From contig NZ_FRBR01000004.1 of the NCBI RefSeq assembly GCF_900142665.1, positions 210,288-274,287 of the forward strand: a stretch of DNA of 64,000 nt, written 5' to 3'. The translations under genes and the position numbers were made by a program. Source of the DNA: Roseovarius pacificus (GTDB lineage: Bacteria; Pseudomonadota; Alphaproteobacteria; Rhodobacterales; Rhodobacteraceae). The notes beneath the pieces are model-generated. The model did not search any database, was not told where the DNA came from, and saw only the letters and a list, made by a program, of their open reading frames with translations. Positions within the stretch are counted from its first letter, which is position 1; each line of letters starts with the position of its first letter. Below, piece by piece: positions 54,945-63,632 of the stretch.

Positions 54945-55820
54945 ATGCGCGCCAATCATCATCAATTCGTCGCCTTCGCCTATGTGGTGCGCGAAGGCAG
55001 TTTCTCGGCCGCCGCCACCCGGCTCGGGGTGACGCAATCGGCGGTCACGCAACATGTCGCCAAGCTTGAAAAGCAGGTCGGCTCGCCCTTGCTCTTTCGG
55101 AACCGGGAGGGCGTGTCGCTGACCCGGACGGGCGAGGAGTTCTACGATCTCGCCGACCGGCTGGTGACGCTCGACACGGCGATCACTGAACGGCTCGAAG
55201 GGTTCGAGGCGATGGAACGCGGCCATATCAAGATCATCGCCAACGCGCCGCTGCCTGCGCTCCGCGCGATCAGCCAGTTCCGTCAGGCCTACCCGGATGT
55301 GGAAATTGATTTCGCGCTCTATGCTTGGAGCACCGCCACGCGGCTTTTGCGCGAACGGCGGGCGGATGTCGGGCTCATCACCGATCCGCCCCGCTCGGAA
55401 GACTGGGAACGGGTCTCGATCCTCAAGGCGCGCTACGTCGCCTATCTCCTGCCCTCGTCCCCGCTGGCAGGCCGCGACCTGCTGCATTTCCGCGATCTGA
55501 CCGACGAGACGATCATCCTGCCGGAAACAGGCTCGCTGACCGAACGGGTGGTGCGCGAGGCGCAGGTCAAACATGGCATCCGCTTTCCCCGGACGATCAC
55601 CATGACGACCTTTCCGCTGATGTGCGAGGCGGTGTTTCAGGGCGCAGGGATCGCGCTTTTCCTCGCCAACAGCGGCCTGATCTCGCGCGGGTTGGTCGAG
55701 GTGCCGGTGGCCGAGCTTTCGGCCAGCCATGAAACCGCCGTCATCGCCCCCAAAGACCGGGCGCGCCTGCGGCTGGTAAAAGCCTTCATCGAAATCGCCT
55801 CCTCGCTGGATTTCAGATAG
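54945..55820 (+). CDS. LysR-family regulator of the Ugp-like operon
   Basis: 291 residues from the ATG at 54945, with GGAGGAAC six bases upstream. The helix-turn-helix reads FSAAATRLGVTQSAVTQHVAKL. The effector domain (IIANAPLPALRAISQFRQAY) resembles CysB/Cbl-like or phosphonate-type regulators only loosely. Divergent layout with two palindromes suggests it controls the importer operon and itself. The effector is unknown. Confidence 0.88.
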   Translation: MRANHHQFVAFAYVVREGSFSAAATRLGVTQSAVTQHVAKLEKQVGSPLLFRNREGVSLTRTGEEFYDLADRLVTLDTAITERLEGFEAMERGHIKIIANAPLPALRAISQFRQAYPDVEIDFALYAWSTATRLLRERRADVGLITDPPRSEDWERVSILKARYVAYLLPSSPLAGRDLLHFRDLTDETIILPETGSLTERVVREAQVKHGIRFPRTITMTTFPLMCEAVFQGAGIALFLANSGLISRGLVEVPVAELSASHETAVIAPKDRARLRLVKAFIEIASSLDFR

Positions 55821-55958
55821 CCCGGCGATATGCGCGCCCTCGCATCTGACGCGTTAAGGCGACGGCCACGTAGCGGTTCCGCAAAGGTATCACCGGATTG
55901 AAACGCGCCGAATCACTGCTCCTCTTTTCGTACCTCTGAGCGGCCACCCCCGACAGAA

Positions 55959-56842
55959 GGCTCTGTTGCAAACTTTATCACATGACGCAGTTACCCCTCC
56001 ATTGGACACACTTATGCTGCGGCTTTGAAATGCTCTTCGATCAGCGTCATTGCCTCGGTCATGACACATGGCCCGACACCGAAGGCGCGTTCGATCATGC
56101 GTTTTTCGCCAATCGGGTCGCGGGTCAGGTTGAAGGTGCGGCCCTGGCCTTTTCGCAGGGCGCGCATCACCTCGAAACCCTTGATTGTGGCGTAGGCCGT
56201 CCTCATCGTCTTGAAACCCCGGACCGGCTTGATCAGCTGCTTGAGCTTGCCCTGATCGGCCTCGATCACATTATTTAGATACTTGACCTGGCGGTGTTCC
56301 ACGTCCCGCGGACATTTACCCTCTTTCTTCAACTCGCGGATCGCCTGAATGTAGCATCCGGCCTTGTCGGTGTTGATCTTGGACGGTTTCTCCCAATCTT
56401 TACAGGCACGAATGGCCTTGCCCAGAAAGCGTTTCGCGGCTTTGGCATTGCGGGTTGAAGACAGGTAGAAATCGACGGTGTTCCCCAACTTATCGACCGC
56501 CCGGTACAGATACGTCCACTTGCCGCGCACCTTGATGTACGTTTCGTCAACGCGCCAGCTATCCGACATCGGCCGCCGCCACTGCCAGCGCATCCGCCGC
56601 TCCATTTCGGGGGCGTAGCGTTGCACCCAGCGGTAAATGGTCGAATGATCGACACGCACACCGCGCTCCGCCATCATGGTTTCCAGATCACGATAGCTGA
56701 GGCCATACCGACAGTACCAGCGAACAGCCCAAAGCACGACTTCACCAGAGAAATGCCGCCCTTTGAAATCGTTCATAGCTTGATCCTCGCACTGAAAACC
56801 GACCCAAACATGGCAACCCGCATATGTGTTTGCAACAGAGCC
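55959..56842 (-). mobile_element. IS6-family (IS26-like) element, copy 2
   Basis: 884 bp with the same perfect ends GGCTCTGTTGCAAA and TTTGCAACAGAGCC and the same orientation as copy 1. It interrupts a gene on its right. Flanks CGACAGAA and AATCAGAT are not a target duplication. Confidence 0.95.
56012..56776 (-). CDS. IS6-family transposase, copy 2
   Basis: 254 residues, nearly identical to copy 1. It keeps D-D-E (DETYIKV, NTDKAGCY, NNVIEAD) but has Gln instead of His three residues after the catalytic Glu (EADQG). His is what I expect at this site in IS6 proteins, so activity may be reduced. The Pro in YAPEMERR is the usual residue, so copy 1 carries the change at that site. Confidence 0.93.
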   Translation of the reverse strand: MNDFKGRHFSGEVVLWAVRWYCRYGLSYRDLETMMAERGVRVDHSTIYRWVQRYAPEMERRMRWQWRRPMSDSWRVDETYIKVRGKWTYLYRAVDKLGNTVDFYLSSTRNAKAAKRFLGKAIRACKDWEKPSKINTDKAGCYIQAIRELKKEGKCPRDVEHRQVKYLNNVIEADQGKLKQLIKPVRGFKTMRTAYATIKGFEVMRALRKGQGRTFNLTRDPIGEKRMIERAFGVGPCVMTEAMTLIEEHFKAAA

Positions 56843-57109
56843 AATCAGATCGCATTTGGAGCGTTCCTTCTCGGGGATCTCCAGGATGTGAGCACGGCAG
56901 AGGTCGTCTTCCTTGAAGAAGTAAGCACATGTTTCAGTAACGGGTGGTCTGCCGCTGTCTCTACGTAGATGACCCAGATCAACGCCGATGAGGGTCTGGT
57001 CTGGCGCCTGAGATGGGCTGCCGAGCAAGGTGACGAAGGGTTTCCAAGGGATCTCGAGGTTCTTCGGAAGAGGGCGCGGGGTGAGTGTGCAGAGTGTCGG
57101 TTTTGTCAT
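56843..57109 (-). pseudogene. Unknown gene cut by IS6 copy 2
   Basis: The ATG at 57109 follows TTGGAGGCAATT, a good ribosome site nearly identical to that before the AlpA-like gene. 89 codons remain, from MTKPTLCTLTPRPLPKNLE to EKERSKCDLIG, then the IS begins. The product is not recognised. Its 3' end is not elsewhere in the window. Confidence 0.65.
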
Positions 57110-57749
57110 AATTGCCTCCAAGGCTGAAACAAGGGTCTGAAGTTGGCGCGGCGTTGCCCGCTATGTTGAGACGGCCGGTCTCGACCGCTGAAAGGGATTT
57201 GGCTGCGAGGCTCAGCCGCCGGAAATCAGACGCAGCTTGACGTTGCGTCAACATGCGTGGGGCAGCATGGTTTGACCTTTGTACTGAAGGCCGGCGCCGG
57301 GTCGCTTGGAGGGTGCAATTTAAAAGTAGACACGGCAAATTTGGCGCTCAGGTCTGGTTGGCCTGCGTGCTTCGCACAGAGGGCATTCAGCCGACGATTC
57401 GCGGCACAACCAGATAAGACCACGGCCGGAGATTTGGACAGCGCATCAAAACAGGCGGCTGGCAAAAACCGTTGGTCGTACCGCCCGCACCCAAGCATTT
57501 GAAACTCTGCGTGGGAATTTCGGCTCTCATCCGTGTCTCGGCCAAAGCGTGCAACGAAAGCTGTCTCCGGCGTCGCGCCACCCTATTTCCAATCAATTCT
57601 CTGCCTCCGGGGCTCATCATGTTTACGGCGACTTTGGGCACAGGACACCCGTGAAATGAGCTGCGGTGGCGGCGCGAGGGAGACGGTTTCCGGAAGCGGA
57701 ACCGCACCCTGCGCGGCGCCAAACGCAACTTTCGAAAAGGAACTCCCCC
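57110..57749. other. Gene-poor stretch, 640 bp
   Basis: No convincing gene is seen. Short open frames here lack ribosome sites and family likeness. TTTAAAAGTAGACACGG at 57319 resembles the ends of some IS21-type elements, so the stretch may be transposon debris; that is weak. Confidence 0.4.
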
Positions 57750-58199
57750 ATGAATAATCAACTCCCGGTCACGTTCGAGAACATCGAGGGCATCGCTGCA
57801 GAAGCGTTCGCGGATGCGCGCATCTGCGCAACCGCCCTGCGCGAAGATGTTATCCCGAACCTCGCGCGAATGGAGCGCAAAGCGCCGGAACGGCTGATCA
57901 AGGCGATCGAGACGGGACAGATCTTCGAAAATGAAACGCTCGTCGAACTCGACGTTCTCATCAACAAGCTCTCGCGACGGATCGCGGACGGCACGACGCA
58001 AGTCGAACGCGTCGACGATCACGCTTACTGTTTTTCCGAGGATCCGTCTTGGACAGAAACACATCGGACGTGTGTGGCCGAAGATATGTCACGCGCGCTT
58101 ACCGTGCTGTTGAGCTTCCACGCTTCTCTGCAAGCAGTGCATGACCTGATGAATGCGCAGCGCGAGCTCGAGAAGATGCGCCAGCGCACGCAACCGTAA
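57750..58199 (+). CDS. Hypothetical protein, helical, 149 residues
   Basis: ATG at 57750 with AAAAGGAAC upstream. The product is mostly helical and charged: LARMERKAPERLIKAIETGQ, then VLINKLSRRIADG, and a final MNAQRELEKMRQRTQP that could be a coiled coil. There is no signal peptide or known motif. A GC-rich hairpin follows. It looks like an accessory gene with normal coding bias. Confidence 0.65.
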   Translation: MNNQLPVTFENIEGIAAEAFADARICATALREDVIPNLARMERKAPERLIKAIETGQIFENETLVELDVLINKLSRRIADGTTQVERVDDHAYCFSEDPSWTETHRTCVAEDMSRALTVLLSFHASLQAVHDLMNAQRELEKMRQRTQP

Positions 58200-58588
58200 A
58201 AAGATCATGAATGTGGGTGCGCTTTCTCTCTTTTCCCCGAAAAGCGTGAGCGCGCCGGTCGCATAGTTTGATCATTTGCAGCCCGCACTTGAAACCGTGC
58301 GGGCTGCTCAGCGCCAGGAGCGTCTGGCCACGGGTTCGAGCTGGTGTTTACCCAAGCCTCTGCTGAACAAAAGGGCTTGGCGCGTGGGTCGCTCCCCCGT
58401 TCTCGCTCAATGCGGCCGGAGCCTTCAGCCAAGGAATGAACGCGAACGATTGTGAATCCGGCTTCGGAGAAAACATCCTGCGCTTAAGAAAATCGTCCAT
58501 CTGGTTTTGCCGCTCGTCCATTCGATCCGACGTCATTCCCGGGCGCCGAAAGGTCGTCCCTTCAGGAACCCAGGAAAAGGACAATACC
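58200..58588. other. Spacer with a perfect hairpin
   Basis: GCAGCCCGCAC and GTGCGGGCTGC (58278-58307) pair over 11 bp with an eight-base loop, a likely terminator without a T-run. The rest shows no gene; an open frame from 58436 is just the upstream extension of the next gene. Confidence 0.6.
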
Positions 58589-58975
58589 ATGCTACATTCA
58601 ACGAAATCCGCGAGCGCGTCCGAGACTGACTCAAGACTCTCGCTGCTGGACATCGTGATGCAAGCGCTCGAAGTGACTGGACGCATTCCCACCACGCAGC
58701 CCGAGACAGGTTTTTCGGACGCGTTCACGGCAGACAGGATTTCTGATTTCTATGTCGAGGAACTGAACGGTGGTTGGGTTTCGACGCTCCGGTTCCGCGA
58801 CATACCGGAAGGCCTGCCCGACGCGTTGGGGTCGCCGGATATCATGCCGTACCGTGAGCGCCGAGATGCCTTTCTGCACGGCGCTGGCATCCTATGCGAG
58901 ATTGTCACCGGAAGCCGTGAGTTGCCGTTCACGATTGTCGGCGATCACCTCATCGTCGCGGCCTATGGCGCTTGA
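58589..58975 (+). CDS. Hypothetical protein, 128 residues
   Basis: ATG at 58589 behind AAAAGG. It starts with a Ser/Thr-rich segment (STKSASASETDSRLSLLD), then DIVMQALEVTGRIPTT and a globular part with ADRISDFYVEELNGGW. Not recognised. Like the gene before it, it is a single gene with a hairpin after it. Confidence 0.6.
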   Translation: MLHSTKSASASETDSRLSLLDIVMQALEVTGRIPTTQPETGFSDAFTADRISDFYVEELNGGWVSTLRFRDIPEGLPDALGSPDIMPYRERRDAFLHGAGILCEIVTGSRELPFTIVGDHLIVAAYGA

Positions 58976-58999
58976 AGCGGTACGTGAAGGCTTACGCGA

Positions 59000-59023
59000 C
59001 CGGGGCGGTTCAATCCGCCCCGG
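59000..59023 (+). terminator. Hairpin after the 128-residue gene
   Basis: CCGGGGCGG-TTCAAT-CCGCCCCGG is a perfect 9-bp stem with a six-base loop, 24 bp past the stop. No T-run follows, so Rho-independent action is uncertain. Confidence 0.6.
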
Positions 59024-59150
59024 CCCGTTCCGCCGCACTGTTGTCACGTTCCCCGAGGGATCATCGTTCGCGATGCCGGGTCATTGGGCCGGATGGTAGC
59101 CAGCACCTCAGGCGCGGATCAAGCGCGACACCTGCCACCGCGTGACAGCC

Positions 59151-59546
59151 TTACGGATCGACCCGCACGGTATATTGCACACCACCTTGCGGACCCCAGG
59201 TCCAGGAAATAAGAACCGGCGTCTCATTGAAGCGTCCGCGGACCGCAGGCTCTCCGCGTCCGATCGTTGTTTTCTCCAGTTCCGTGATGCGCCCGCGGCG
59301 GGCAATGTCTTCCGTCATCTCGGCGGCCTGGTCAACGGATACGGCCGCGTCCGAGATCCAGCAGGTGCGCGATCCTTCCGAGACCGTCGCGATCGTCTCC
59401 CCGCGAACTTCCTGAACAGCGCCGTTCTGGCCGTCGACCAGGGTCGCGTCGGGGAAACGACGGTCGACCGGTTGCCCCGAGAGCACGACGAAAAGCACCC
59501 CCCATGGCCAGCCCCTTACGGAAAATGTTGATATGAGCGCTTCCAT
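59151..59546 (-). CDS. Hypothetical secreted or anchored protein, 131 residues
   Basis: The ATG at 59546 has GGGGG four bases upstream. A short hydrophobic N-terminus (GWPWGVLFVVLSG) could be a signal or anchor. The rest has a small beta-rich look with TWGPQGGVQYTVRVDP at the end. No family recognised; the coding call is moderate. Confidence 0.5.
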   Translation of the reverse strand: MEALISTFSVRGWPWGVLFVVLSGQPVDRRFPDATLVDGQNGAVQEVRGETIATVSEGSRTCWISDAAVSVDQAAEMTEDIARRGRITELEKTTIGRGEPAVRGRFNETPVLISWTWGPQGGVQYTVRVDP

Positions 59547-59679
59547 TTACCCCCGGAAGGGCCAGCATTGCTTTTAAAACAAGGTTCTTATGGAAACTCT
59601 GAGGGAGAACGCAAATGTGCTAAGTCTCGAAAATATCTTCGAGAGGGCTCCGAGCGGCTCGCTGCGAGTATCTCCGACA

Positions 59680-59775
59680 TTCACTTGAGCTTGGACAGAA
59701 TCATTTACTTGAAAGCGGACCGTGATGTTTACTTGATGATGGACAGTCCTATATACTTCTAATTGGACGCATGTA
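59680..59775 (+). repeat. Four 24-bp direct repeats before the AbiEi-Fic gene
   Basis: ACTTGA occurs at 59683, 59707 and 59731, and ACTTCT at 59755, exactly 24 bp apart. Each is followed two bases later by a sequence ending GGAC (TTGGAC, GCGGAC, ATGGAC, TTGGAC). The array ends about 16 bp before the start codon and must cover the promoter. It is most likely an operator for the gene's own N-terminal DNA-binding domain. Confidence 0.8.
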
Positions 59776-59791
59776 ATGGATCGGGAGGGTT

Positions 59792-61309
59792 ATGGTAGAC
59801 AAACGGAAGATCTTGGCTGACGCGATGGAAGCCCTGCACACCTTGCAGAAGCAAGGACATCTTGTTGTTCGTAGCGGCGAGATCGACCCGGTGCGGATCA
59901 AGGCGCTAAGGAAGGCGGGCTATCTTCAGCCCATCATGAAGGGCTGGTATCATCTGTCGGACCCCAGTTCGCGTCCTGGTGACACGACGCCGTGGACGAT
60001 GAGCTACTGGTCATTTGTCCAGAGATACTGCGAGCATCGTTTCGGCATCGACTGGGTTCTCAGTCCTGAGATTTGCCTTAGCCTGCATACTGGATCTCAG
60101 GTGCCGGCTACCCAGGTGGTGGTGCATGCCCCCAAGGGAGGCAACAATACTGTCGAACTCCCAGGCAAGCGGTCGCTCTTCGATCTGAGGGTCAGGGAGC
60201 TTCCTGAGCAGGAAAGGAGGATGCAGCTGCCGAACGGGCTGAGGGTCTACACTCCGGAGGCCACGCTGATCCATATGGCAGAGAATTGCTATCATACGCA
60301 GGCTATGTCAGTGGCAGCACTGATGGGCAGCTACCGAAATGTCGATGTCCTGTTGCGCGCGGTGGTGGGCGGGGCGCACAGGCGCCCGGGTAACCGCCTG
60401 GTTGGCGCGTTCAAGCACTTGGGAATGGACGATCACGCCAAGCGCCTGGCCGATGGCATGCGCCGCGCAGATATGGATCTAAGGAATGAAAACCCCTTTG
60501 AGGGGGAAGGCATTGCTGTTGTTGCTGGTGCGGCCCCGATCTCTAACATGTTGCGAGCGATATGGCAGAGGGACCGACAAGTGATCATTGACCTGCTACC
60601 GGCCCCCGAGGGACCTGTCGAAGTCGACGAGGTGCTGGGACAGATTGACGATGTCTACACCCATGATGCCTGGAACTCGCTCTCGATCGAAGGTTATCGG
60701 GTCTCCGAAGAGCTGATCGAGAAGATTCGCAGTGGTAGCTGGGACCCGGAGGCCGACAAGTCTGACGCAACCTCTCGTGATGCTATGGCAGCAAAGGGTT
60801 ACTGGAATGTTTTCCAGTCTGCCCGCGAGGTGGTGAAAACATCCATCGAGCGAGGTGAGCCGGTCTCGGTGCGAGACAATCTAAGCGATTGGTATCAGGA
60901 CCTCTTCGAGCCCTCGATCGACGCAGGCATCCTAACGCGAGGCCAACTGATAGGATATCGCAATCACCCGGTATTTATTCGCACAGCCAATCATGTGCCC
61001 CCGGCGAGCGAAAAGCTTATGGATGCGATGGAGACCTACTTCGACCTTCTTGACGAGGAGGAGCATTCCGGAGTGCGCGCGGTGCTTGGTCACTGGCTTT
61101 TGGGCTACATCCACCCTTATCCCGACGGAAACGGGCGCCTCGCTCGTTTCGTAATGAACGCGGTGCTCGCGAGTTCGGGCTATCCATGGGCTGTGATCCG
61201 GCTCGATCAGCGGAGGCGCTACATGCAGGCTCTCGACGCCGCGAGTTTTGGAGGCGACATCGCTCCCTTCGCGAAGCTGATAAGTGAGCATCTTGGCAAC
61301 AAGCCCTGA
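59792..61309 (+). CDS. AbiEi-like domain fused to a class II Fic domain
   Basis: 505 residues behind GGGAGGG. The first 150 or so residues (ALHTLQKQGHLVVRSGEIDP, KALRKAGYLQPIMKGWYHLS) look like an AbiEi-type antitoxin/winged-helix domain. The C-terminal part is a Fic domain with the complete motif HPYPDGNGRLAR (His441 to Arg452). A class II inhibitory motif, S296-x3-E300-G301, precedes the core. Fic proteins transfer AMP or related groups to targets and are held off by that Glu. The fusion couples an AbiEi-like regulator and a Fic effector. Next genes are hipBA. Confidence 0.85.
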   Translation: MVDKRKILADAMEALHTLQKQGHLVVRSGEIDPVRIKALRKAGYLQPIMKGWYHLSDPSSRPGDTTPWTMSYWSFVQRYCEHRFGIDWVLSPEICLSLHTGSQVPATQVVVHAPKGGNNTVELPGKRSLFDLRVRELPEQERRMQLPNGLRVYTPEATLIHMAENCYHTQAMSVAALMGSYRNVDVLLRAVVGGAHRRPGNRLVGAFKHLGMDDHAKRLADGMRRADMDLRNENPFEGEGIAVVAGAAPISNMLRAIWQRDRQVIIDLLPAPEGPVEVDEVLGQIDDVYTHDAWNSLSIEGYRVSEELIEKIRSGSWDPEADKSDATSRDAMAAKGYWNVFQSAREVVKTSIERGEPVSVRDNLSDWYQDLFEPSIDAGILTRGQLIGYRNHPVFIRTANHVPPASEKLMDAMETYFDLLDEEEHSGVRAVLGHWLLGYIHPYPDGNGRLARFVMNAVLASSGYPWAVIRLDQRRRYMQALDAASFGGDIAPFAKLISEHLGNKP

Positions 61310-61483
61310 CAGAAAGGCTATGACTCGAAGCGTATCGGCGCGCCACCACGCTGAGAGCCTTGCACCACAGCAGGGAATGGTGGACGCCATCAACATTTAC
61401 TGTCAGGAGCTTGGCCGCCATGGCGGTCTTCAGTGACCGCCCATCCGCGAACGATCCGGTTGCGACGCCGATACAGGCAATAA

Positions 61484-61595
61484 TGAACCGCGCCGGGTTT
61501 GCCGGAGGCTCCAACTCCTGAGTAGGATGGAGCATCATGAGCAAGACAACGAACAAGTATTCCCCGGAAGTGCGCGAGCGTGCGGTTCGATCCCC
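61484..61595 (+). mobile_element. IS3-family left end with start of orfA
   Basis: TGAACCGCGCCGGGTTTGCC is a typical IS3-group terminal repeat. An ATG at 61537 opens MSKTTNKYSPEVRERAVR, the usual orfA beginning, but likeness stops after 18 codons. The rest of the element is absent. Confidence 0.75.
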
Positions 61596-61991
61596 AGCCG
61601 TTCACTTTAGAGTGGCCTCGGTAAGAACAACACTGGAGCGCTCATCAAAACTATAATACCGGGCAAGGTTTAAGCTCATTGCTCGGAGCTTGTCTCCGCG
61701 CGAAGATATTTTCGTGAGCGCGGAATGGGCCGAAAATCCAAGAACACAAGATATAGAGATGTCGGCGGGGACCCTTGTCTCCCGCCGGCACACGGCGATC
61801 TCCAGGTGAATGCGTGCCGGACGCCAGGATGACTACCCAGCGAACGGGGGTGATGGGAACACGGCCGATCAGAAGCTCTTCTGCAAGACCTGCCGGAAAT
61901 CCGCAGGCAAGCCACCACGCCGAACCGGAGCTGTCTTGGTATTCCCGGTAGGGTCATTTTTGACACTTCAAGTCGCCATTTAATGCATAAA

Positions 61992-62007
61992 GTATCTATT
62001 TTGATAC
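61992..62007. promoter_or_regulatory. Inverted-repeat operator of hipBA
   Basis: GTATC-TATTTT-GATAC is a perfect inverted repeat 69 bp before the hipB start, in an AT-rich promoter region with TTGACA at 61960. HipB proteins are known to bind TATCC-N8-GGATA type sites, so a related autoregulatory operator is likely. Confidence 0.7.
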
Positions 62008-62076
62008 CTTGTGTTGAGTTATTTGCCGATTTGCAATATCTTCTTGGACAAGATTTGCAGTGCGCTGAGGATGCTA

Positions 62077-62397
62077 ATGGAGACATTACCGGGGTTCCTG
62101 ACCCCCGAAGACATCAAGGAGAAGATGCGCGATGCGGTGCGCAAGCGGCGCATCGGCATGGGCTTCACGCAAGAGGAGCTGGCCGCGCGCGCCGGGATCT
62201 CGCTCGCCACCATGAGGCGGTTCGAGAAGAGAGGTGACGGCACCCTTTCGACCGTGTTGGCGCTGGCCGAGACGCTCGACGCGCTGGATGGTTTCAGGAG
62301 CCTCTTCCCACCGGTCGAGGCGCGCACGCTTGATGAGCTCGAGCGGCAGAAGTCCGAGAAAATTCCACAACGCGTGCGCAAGGGGAAGATCTCGTGA
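62077..62397 (+). CDS. hipB: HipB-like antitoxin, XRE family
   Basis: 106 residues from the ATG at 62077, which has GAGG six bases upstream; an ATG at 62071 is possible. The helix-turn-helix is clear: FTQEELAARAGISLATMRRF. The C-terminus is charged (ERQKSEKIPQRVRKGK). It pairs with the overlapping hipA gene, neutralises the toxin and represses the operon in known systems. Confidence 0.88.
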   Translation: METLPGFLTPEDIKEKMRDAVRKRRIGMGFTQEELAARAGISLATMRRFEKRGDGTLSTVLALAETLDALDGFRSLFPPVEARTLDELERQKSEKIPQRVRKGKIS

Positions 62398-63632
62398 TCG
62401 ACCGCCTCTATGTCACCATTGATTTCGGCGCTGGCGCCAACGAGCGCCCGGTCGGGCAGATGGGCTGGGACGGCCGCGCGCGCCACGCCGTGCTGGAATG
62501 GGATCGCACCTTCGCGGCCGCGCCGCTGCCGATCTCCCCGGTCCACATCAAATCCCAGGCCGGACTCCTGCGTCCCACGAGTCGCGCCTTCGGCGACTTG
62601 CCTGCGGTGTTTGGCGACAGCTTACCCGACGGCTGGGGTAAGCTGTTGGTCGACCGCGAACTGCAGGCGCGCGGCGTGCGACTGGACGAAATCACCGACA
62701 TGGACCGGCTCGCCATGGTCGGCACCGCCGGCATGGGCGCGCTGGCCTACCGACCGGCTCAGGATCCCAACCCGGAGGGTGATTTCGATCTTGACTGGTT
62801 CGAACGGCTGGTGCCCGAGGTTGATGGCGGCGCCACGGCCGGGGAACTGGAGCGGTTGCGCGCGGTGGCGGGCGGCTCCCAGGGCGCGCGGCCGAAGTTC
62901 GTGGCCCAGCTGGCGGCGGACGGTGCGCGGCTGCGCGATCACCGCGCGGCGCTGGAGAAGGGCTGGCGCCATGTCCTGGTGAAGCGGCGCGCGCTGCAAG
63001 ACCCGGTAGGCACTGTCGAGGTCGAGGCGGCCTATGCCATGATGGCGCGGGCGGCCGGGATCGAGATGAGCTGGACGGGCGTGCTGCACGCGACCTCCGG
63101 CGAGCCCTTCTTTGCCACGGAGAGGTTCGACCGACCCGACGGCGGGCGGCTCCACATGCAGACAGTCGCCGCACTGTTCGCGGTCGACTTCCGCGAAGCC
63201 TATCTGGACTACAAAGAGCTGCTGCGCCTCACCCGCTTCATGACCCGCGACGCGCGCGCCGCCGAGCAGATCTATCGCCGGATGGTCTTCAACGCGCGAA
63301 CCCACAACCGCGACGATCACCTAAAAAACCACGCCTTCCTGATGGACGCTGCCGGCAGTTGGCGGCTGGCTCCGGCCTATGATGTGACCTACAGCTCCGG
63401 ACCCGGCGGCGAACACACGCTCACCATCGCCGACGAGGGTCGGAGGCCGGGCCGCGAGTCCTTCGCCGCAGTGGCGCGGGAGAGCGGGATCTCCGCGCGG
63501 CGAGCGGCCGAGATCGTCGACGAGGTGGATGGCGCCGCCGCGGACTGGTTGGAGTATGCCGACGCCACCGGCGTGCCCCCGCAGCTTCGCCGGGAAATTA
63601 GTGAACAGATGGAGCGCGCGGCGGGCTGGTGA
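62394..63632 (+). CDS. hipA: HipA-like serine/threonine kinase toxin
   Basis: 412 residues from a GTG at 62394 that overlaps the hipB stop. HipA features: GQMGWDGR and FGDLPAVFGDSLPDGWGKLL in the N-terminal part, a Gly-rich loop GGSQGARPKF, the catalytic loop HNRDDHLKNH (Asp307, Lys311, Asn312), and APAYDVTYS as the metal-binding DFG equivalent. E. coli HipA phosphorylates GltX; the target here is unknown. The catalytic residues are intact. Confidence 0.92.
   Translation: MIDRLYVTIDFGAGANERPVGQMGWDGRARHAVLEWDRTFAAAPLPISPVHIKSQAGLLRPTSRAFGDLPAVFGDSLPDGWGKLLVDRELQARGVRLDEITDMDRLAMVGTAGMGALAYRPAQDPNPEGDFDLDWFERLVPEVDGGATAGELERLRAVAGGSQGARPKFVAQLAADGARLRDHRAALEKGWRHVLVKRRALQDPVGTVEVEAAYAMMARAAGIEMSWTGVLHATSGEPFFATERFDRPDGGRLHMQTVAALFAVDFREAYLDYKELLRLTRFMTRDARAAEQIYRRMVFNARTHNRDDHLKNHAFLMDAAGSWRLAPAYDVTYSSGPGGEHTLTIADEGRRPGRESFAAVARESGISARRAAEIVDEVDGAAADWLEYADATGVPPQLRREISEQMERAAGW

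What the first reader, a model, noticed from the sequence alone, without database searches (positions are those of the whole stretch)
59680..61309. AbiEi-like/Fic fusion controlled by a 24-bp repeat array
One gene joins an AbiEi-like antitoxin/DNA-binding domain to a Fic domain that keeps both the full catalytic motif and a class II inhibitory Ser-x3-Glu-Gly. AbiEi normally represses and opposes a nucleotidyltransferase toxin encoded separately; here the effector is a Fic transferase in the same chain. Four phased repeats (ACTTGA ... GGAC, 24-bp period) cover the promoter and fit cooperative self-repression. Together with hipBA next door this reads as a stress or phage-defence module.
Basis: partly seen in the sequence, partly recalled or inferred. 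Interest (0 to 1): 0.75.

Follow-up and report, generated by a model that had tools for sequence, protein, structure and literature searches.

The report
Self-silencing Fic switch, repeat-ladder promoter
One bacterial gene joins a DNA-reading module, predicted to have the fold of the AbiEi antitoxin, to a Fic enzyme module; a ladder of 24-base repeats stands right before it and recurs before its relatives in three classes of bacteria, so the protein likely switches its own gene off there, and close copies of the whole unit appear to have jumped between genera.

Summary
The 505-aa protein (59792-61309) has an N-terminal half whose predicted fold best matches AbiEi (6y8q, 1zel) and a class II Fic half. 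The key catalytic and inhibitory residues are invariant in 55 aligned members. Four 24-bp units (59680-59775) cover the likely promoter.

The ladder is a family hallmark. The strongest period before the start is 24 or 23 bp in 52 of 56 homologues, against 4 of 99 other genes of the same plasmid loci. Unit letters drift; the period stays. Nine plain AbiEi genes lack it.

I infer one AbiEi module per unit, head to tail, blocking the promoter; AbiEi is known to use 23-bp inverted sites. Binding, AMPylation and toxicity are untested.

New: in the closest relatives, gene and ladder form a transposase-less cassette of about 1.9 kb with inverted ends and 8-10-bp target duplications. One Paracoccus cassette with similar ends carries a Phd/PIN toxin-antitoxin pair instead.

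Verdict: a new variant of a known kind, a self-regulating class II Fic protein.

The parts
59508..59532 (+). left inverted terminal repeat of the mobile cassette
   Evidence: arms 59510-59532 and 61389-61411 are 83% complementary; the same ends bound the element in L009, L010, L012 and L015
59680..59703 (+). operator unit 1 (ACTTGAN4GGAC exact)
   Evidence: period test
59704..59727 (+). operator unit 2 (exact)
59728..59751 (+). operator unit 3 (exact); its TTTACT is the likely -35 hexamer
59752..59775 (+). operator unit 4 (8 of 10); its TATACT is the likely -10 hexamer, 18-bp spacer
   Evidence: same-phase hexamers in 19 of 56 loci
59792..61309 (+). AbiEi-Fic fusion gene, 505 aa
59792..59971 (+). 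winged-helix part, residues 1-60 (predicted)
   Evidence: model: helix 4-20, strand 25-27, helix 33-42, strands 45-49 and 52-55
59987..60481 (+). AbiEi second domain (nucleotidyltransferase-like fold), residues 66-230 (predicted)
60677..60694 (+). inhibitory motif S296-L-S-I-E300-G301 of class II Fic
   Evidence: S296, L297, I299, E300, G301 invariant in 55 of 55 rows
61112..61147 (+). Fic catalytic motif HPYPDGNGRLAR, residues 441-452
61389..61411 (-). right inverted terminal repeat

Best explanation
It is a one-gene Fic protein that likely regulates itself: the N-terminal module, predicted to have the AbiEi fold, would bind each 24-bp unit of the array as a monomer, head to tail, and so block the gene's own promoter, while the conserved class II inhibitory motif would keep the Fic domain off until an unknown trigger. 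Shown by sequence or computation: the fusion, the intact catalytic and inhibitory motifs, the array, its co-occurrence with the family, its absence before nine plain AbiEi genes, and the cassette with terminal repeats and target duplications. Inferred: binding, one protomer per unit, repression, cooperativity, AMPylation, toxicity and trigger. The period also equals a -35 to -10 distance with an 18-bp spacer (6+18). In 19 of 56 loci promoter-like hexamers sit at the same phase of neighbouring units, so the bound protein and RNA polymerase would exclude each other. In the window's clade gene and ladder travel as a transposase-less cassette, which an outside transposase presumably moves.
For: Period 24 (48) or 23 (4) is strongest in 52 of 56 upstream regions, against 4 of 99 other genes of the same annotated plasmid loci; Fisher p 1.9e-31. 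Without five near-copies of the window it is 47 of 51. One of the 4 control hits (L060 2744-) faces the same array across a shared intergenic region. Plain AbiEi genes: 0 of 9. In six orthologous promoters the four GGAC columns and three of four ACTT columns are unchanged in all four units, while spacer columns vary. Fold. Motifs invariant. Published: AbiEi monomers bind 23-bp promoter sites and repress (PMC3985639, PMC7319586; passages); a class II Fic with an HTH represses its own promoter (CccR, PMC9755527; abstract and first part of section 10). Cassette.
Against: No binding, expression or activity data. The fold match is modest (TM 0.37-0.51, rmsd 6.3-7.0; rmsd 4.9-5.1). The sigma-70-like hit is no more than shuffles give (1 found, 1.1 expected), and the same-phase hexamer pattern was written. 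L019, L053, L056 and L060 did not give 23 or 24 as best lag, and in 8 of 56 loci more than 2 of 200 shuffles reach the best score. Known AbiEi sites are inverted, not direct.
Confidence: 0.72

Rival explanations
1. The array is the docking site of another regulator, and the N-terminal module has lost DNA binding and only holds the Fic domain back as a built-in antitoxin.
For: No wHTH-specific coevolution with the operator letters. The AbiEi second domain is called an antitoxicity domain (PMC7319586, passage).
Against: The array follows the gene across genera, classes and plasmids, and the 16 annotated plasmid loci share no regulator by name. The winged-helix region is present in the 53 aligned members. 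AbiEi proteins are published autorepressors with sites of about the same length.
Confidence: 0.12
2. The repeats are coding: 24 bp is eight codons, so the array encodes an octapeptide repeat in a leader peptide or an N-terminal extension.
For: An ORF of 64 aa runs through the window's array, and L018 is open in frame through its array.
Against: The frame in register with the gene is open from -120 in 4 of 56 loci and any frame in 20 of 56. Some arrays have period 23 (L050, L051, L068), which would shift the frame. In the window the ORF stops before the gene.
Confidence: 0.04
3. The array arose by recent tandem duplication and the regularity is only history, with no selected spacing.
For: Some arrays, such as that of L055, are nearly perfect copies.
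Against: Core columns are kept and spacers diverge between orthologues. Spacing stays at 24 or 23 although unit letters differ between clades.
Confidence: 0.05
4. The protein is an anti-phage abortive-infection effector like SoFic, sensing phage and not mainly autoregulated.
For: PADLOC SoFic profile hit E 1.4e-17, residues 289-496. SoFic is a one-protein defence system (PMC12249575, passages). Mobile setting; a DEAD/DEAH helicase gene follows in two of 16 plasmid loci (L063, L066).
Against: No defence gene is shared by name across the 16 annotated plasmid loci. The self-repression and defence readings are compatible, so this is a rival for purpose only.
Confidence: 0.25

Closest known systems
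AbiEi antitoxin of type IV AbiE systems (S. agalactiae AbiEi 6y8q; Rv2827c 1zel)
   Same: predicted fold of residues 1-232, both domains; promoter sites of 23 bp in the published systems
   Different: sites here are direct repeats with 24- or 23-bp period, not inverted pairs; a Fic domain stands in the same chain; none of the window's scanned neighbours is AbiEii
CccR of Yersinia pseudotuberculosis (PMC9755527)
   Same: class II Fic enzyme joined to an HTH domain; represses its own promoter (published)
   Different: Fic first and HTH last; two 10-bp inverted repeats 26 bp apart; secreted effector
CbFic2 of Coxiella burnetii (PMC10628234)
   Same: class II Fic with a DNA-binding domain; DNA binding changes the enzyme state (published)
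   Different: C-terminal wHTH; tested with random DNA in the passages that I saw; histone target
SoFic one-protein defence (PMC12249575)
   Same: class II Fic domain
   Different: no AbiEi-like N-terminus and a C-terminal domain instead (wHTH, recalled); phage protection is published for SoFic only
Mobile insertion cassette (MIC; passages in PMC4444841, PMC4133298)
   Same: inverted ends and target duplications, passenger gene in place of a transposase
   Different: passenger is an AbiEi-Fic gene with its operator; the transposase that moves it is not identified

Membership tests
AbiEi antitoxin family / type IV AbiE system | two-domain fold: N-terminal wHTH plus nucleotidyltransferase-like second domain | tested here: met
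AbiEi antitoxin family / type IV AbiE system | match to a Pfam AbiEi profile at its cut-off | tested here: not met
   AbiEi_1 in 2 of 53 members, best E 0.072
AbiEi antitoxin family / type IV AbiE system | bicistronic with a separate AbiEii nucleotidyltransferase | tested here: not met
   five neighbouring ORFs of the window scanned in Pfam, none AbiEii; none of the named neighbours of 16 plasmid homologues is AbiEii, though many are 'hypothetical'
AbiEi antitoxin family / type IV AbiE system | inverted-repeat operator | tested here: not met
   no inverted pair listed within the window's promoter; units are direct, period 24 or 23, in 52 of 56
Class II Fic proteins | catalytic motif HPFxDGNGRxxR | tested here: met
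   HPYPDGNGRLAR (Y for F), key residues invariant in 55 of 55 rows
Class II Fic proteins | inhibitory (S/T)xxxE(G/N) motif N-terminal to the Fic motif in the same chain | tested here: met
   S296LSIEG301, at the end of helix 278-299 of the model
Class II Fic proteins | AMP transfer to a target | not testable with these tools
   needs an assay
CccR-type Fic regulators | N-terminal Fic, C-terminal HTH, inverted operator | tested here: not met
   opposite domain order and direct repeats
SoFic defence system | protection against phage | not testable with these tools
   PADLOC hit covers residues 289-496 only
Mobile insertion cassette | inverted terminal repeats and target duplications around a passenger, no transposase inside | tested here: met
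   ends and direct repeats in the window, L009, L010, L012, L015: exact 9-10 bp in four, 9 of 10 in the window; 11 of 5000 random point pairs give an exact 8-mer; of the ORFs of 60 aa or more that one search lists inside, all but one antisense or small frame set overlap the fusion gene or the array, and none was found to be a transposase by eye (not searched one by one)
Mobile insertion cassette | moved in trans by a transposase with matching ends | tested here: inconclusive
   no other copy of the ends in the own genome at up to 3 mismatches; no transposase with such ends identified in the five plasmid regions opened

The most novel reading that the evidence does not exclude
The ladder is the antidote. 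Chains lined up head to tail on the 24-bp units are held in the silent (or AMP-removing) Fic state by their neighbours. Chains in excess of the ladder, or left behind when the cassette or its plasmid is lost or its DNA is destroyed, become active AMP transferases. The module would be a one-gene addiction system whose antitoxin is a stretch of DNA, spread by jumping cassettes whose toxin-antitoxin cargo can be swapped.
Probability: 0.18. Interest if true: 0.9.

Novelty: new variant of a known kind. Interest (0 to 1): 0.7.

Why it matters
How class II Fic proteins are controlled is poorly known; the CccR authors say so in print (PMC9755527, discussion passage). Here is a large family (2820 hits among 7999 scored candidates) in which the likely control element can be read off the DNA. 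Copy number, spacing and unit letters vary naturally between relatives. That makes testable whether operator occupancy sets Fic activity, as the CbFic2 authors speculated for CccR (PMC10628234, passage). It also suggests an AbiEi module used in head-to-tail arrays and offers a natural set of diverged protein-operator pairs. The cassette shows one way such modules may spread between genera.

Tried and rejected
Viral decoys: the two-unit pattern hits 19 stretches in viral contigs. In the printed matches nearly all are long 12-bp repeats of GACTTGATCCCG type, not 24-bp promoter arrays; I judged them unrelated. A pattern for the cassette end gives 0 hits there, and the protein's peptide patterns give none.

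Operator-reader coevolution: similarity of units rises with wHTH, second-domain and Fic identity alike (Spearman 0.43, 0.51, 0.50; 1413 pairs with Fic identity under 85%, 54 loci). This does not prove that the wHTH reads the unit.

Other genomic targets: the exact motif elsewhere in the own genome (L001, L002, L003, L007) has no neighbours at 24 bp.

Other partners of the N-terminal module: 164 proteins of 128-406 aa at E 1e-5, 120 listed, none of these with a Pfam domain; many are on short contigs and may be fragments. In 376 class genomes 13 of 14 N-terminal matches lie in frames of 510-547 aa and are the places already found, most of which are rows of the query alignment; the other is a 110-aa fragment that keeps an array (L082).

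Cassette ends on other plasmids: of 15 records with weak matches to the end (E 0.02 to 9) I opened five. A second end was found only in L119. L118 and L120 have one end beside CcdAB and Phd/VapC. In L116 the AbiEii gene lies outside the end, so I do not count it.

Terminal repeats in the rest of the family: best inverted pairs of 56 loci against 30 shuffles each. Only the window's clade shows the shared ends. Different pairs in L051, L048, L050 and L046 exceed their shuffles and were not followed. For the window that scan picked another pair; its ends are.

Rows dropped: L020 and L021 (copies of the window and L018), L026 and L027 (broken fragments) and L041 (67 bases upstream) from the period count; L092 (no N-terminus) from the plain AbiEi count; L015 and L059 (broken frames) from alignment A3. 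Start codons were set by rule or by hand; L058 has no start codon at the place used. Of the 75 plasmid records that cover at least 80% of the query I fetched 16 (L053-L068).

Fold search: the rows shown for the full-length model are Fic structures, so the N-terminus was folded alone.

Full report

The ladder. Four units of 24 bp run from 59680 to 59775; three match ACTTGAN4GGAC exactly and the fourth in 8 of 10 letters. The strongest period is 24 in 48 and 23 in 4. Among 99 other genes of the annotated plasmid loci it is 23 or 24 in 4 (Fisher p 1.9e-31). One of these four is a divergent gene that shares the array's intergenic region. In 48 of 56 loci at most 2 of 200 shuffles reach the best score, and 47 of those have period 23 or 24; the other 8 are weaker. 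Of the four misses, I read by eye two units 24 bp apart in L053 (a Bacteroides plasmid), 23-bp units in L056 and 24-bp units in L060, all in the printout; L019 stays unclear. A rough automatic count, which starts from three units, gives 3 to 6 per locus.

Letters drift, period stays. Read by eye, cores are ACTTG in the window's clade and many others, and ACCTA, AGCTA, ACGTG, AGCGA or ACTA elsewhere, mostly 24 and in some 23 bp apart. In six orthologous promoters the four GGAC columns and three of four ACTT columns are the same in all four units, while spacer columns vary. Nine plain AbiEi genes found by Pfam AbiEi_1 (6, 3) do not have 23 or 24 as their best period.

How it likely works. Published AbiEi binds as a monomer to 23-bp sites in its promoter and represses it (PMC3985639 and PMC7319586, passages). 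A 24-bp direct period is therefore about one AbiEi footprint per unit. Successive units are turned by about 100 degrees around the helix (24/10.5 turns, my arithmetic). I infer a head-to-tail row of chains. The period is also the distance of -35 and -10 hexamers with an 18-bp spacer. In the window TTTACT lies in unit 3 and TATACT in unit 4, and 19 of 56 loci show such hexamers at the same phase of neighbouring units, by a pattern that I wrote after seeing the best promoter-like pairs. The promoter hit alone is not above chance (1 found, 1.1 expected). Binding and RNA polymerase would exclude each other. The Fic half would be kept off by its own motif. What releases it and what it modifies are unknown.

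A mobile cassette. Between the window and L009, L010, L012 and L015 (Tritonibacter, Primorskyibacter, Marivita, Pseudophaeobacter), identity of 88-95% starts near 59500 and ends near 61420, and no other part of these loci matches the window at E 1e-8. These borders carry inverted ends of the form CCAGCCCCTKACGGWAAATGTTGAT, with small differences. Outside them lie direct repeats: exact 9-10 bp in four loci and 9 of 10 in the window; random point pairs give an exact 8-mer in 11 of 5000. L011 (Jannaschia) shows the right end; its left end is cut by the contig. The own genome has no further copy of the ends at up to 3 mismatches. A Sulfitobacter dubius plasmid keeps the left end and a scrap of ladder. 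A S. faviae plasmid keeps a ladder and two pieces of the gene. On a Paracoccus aminovorans plasmid similar ends, with a 9-bp direct repeat, enclose a Phd antitoxin and a PIN-domain toxin (L119 4002-5055). So the same kind of cassette seems to carry different toxin-antitoxin cargo; this rests on one complete second example.

Spread. Matches in drawn genomes, own included: 8 of 390 in the order (two of them broken fragments, E limit 1e-30), 13 of 385 in the class and 14 of 398 in the phylum (E limit 1e-40). Named examples are Alpha-, Beta- and Gammaproteobacteria and Bacteroides plasmids. The neighbours differ between most records, though L062 and L064 share theirs. Some homologues of about 600 aa carry a C-terminal tail with PF07369 (two sequences; the name DUF1488 is recalled).

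hipBA. HipB (62011-62397) and HipA (62394-63632) are real. The window's HipA and HipB hit none of the other loci held. A HipA 51% identical lies beside the S. faviae remnant. A HipA-domain gene follows another Fic gene, not shown to be of this family, near the member on a Variovorax plasmid; it matches the window's HipA at 28%. I treat this as shared mobile surroundings.

Known or not. Searches for AbiEi with Fic domain, AbiEi with Fic family protein and related words, COG5340 with Fic, Fic with winged helix and other words (0 papers), Fic with direct repeats and autoregulation, class II Fic and Fic in phage defence gave no paper whose title or abstract start, as listed, describes this fusion or its operator. 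I opened seven papers: CccR (abstract, part 1 of section 10, passages), CbFic2, Sofic, two AbiEi papers and two mobile-element papers (passages only). The other listed papers, among them a Streptococcus thermophilus defence survey, were not read, and most subscription journals are not held. CccR and CbFic2 are the nearest Fic precedents, with the DNA-binding domain at the other end.

Verdict. It looks like an AbiEi autorepressor joined to a class II Fic enzyme, but it is not a type IV AbiE system: separate toxin gene, inverted operator and Pfam profile were tested and not met.

Noticed in passing
L119 4002-5055 (Paracoccus aminovorans plasmid): A 1054-bp cassette with ends like those of the AbiEi-Fic cassette and a 9-bp direct repeat encloses a Phd antitoxin and a PIN-domain toxin.
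   Followed up: partly
L118 4001-4596 and L120 4001-4738: One copy of the cassette end stands directly beside CcdA/CcdB genes (Roseovarius indicus) and a Phd/VapC pair (Paracoccus pantotrophus); the second end was not found.
   Followed up: partly
L012 8014-8038: A further end-like sequence (5 mismatches) lies 1.4 kb after the cassette in Marivita.
   Followed up: no
L050, L068, L051, L056, L067: Arrays with a 23-bp period instead of 24; whether the protein differs to match was not worked out.
   Followed up: no
L067 (Variovorax sp. WDL1 plasmid): Two genes annotated as Fic family stand about 2.8 kb apart, the first followed by a HipA-domain gene. One search lists one matching place in this record, so the first may be another kind of Fic protein.
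   Followed up: no
P0064, P0085 and other proteins of about 600 aa: Family members with an extra C-terminal domain PF07369 (DUF1488 by recall).
   Followed up: no
window 56012-57121 (-): IS240-type (DDE_Tnp_IS240) transposase gene near the cassette.
   Followed up: no
window 55500-62000: G+C of 0.55-0.62 between stretches of 0.63-0.70, as in acquired DNA.
   Followed up: no
L054 4604-5725: A second, shorter Fic gene (373 aa) lies just upstream of the family member on an Aminobacter plasmid.
   Followed up: no
viral contigs L093-L111: Long 12-bp tandem repeats of GACTTGATCCCG type in most of these contigs, several arrays in some, apparently unrelated to the promoter ladder.
   Followed up: partly
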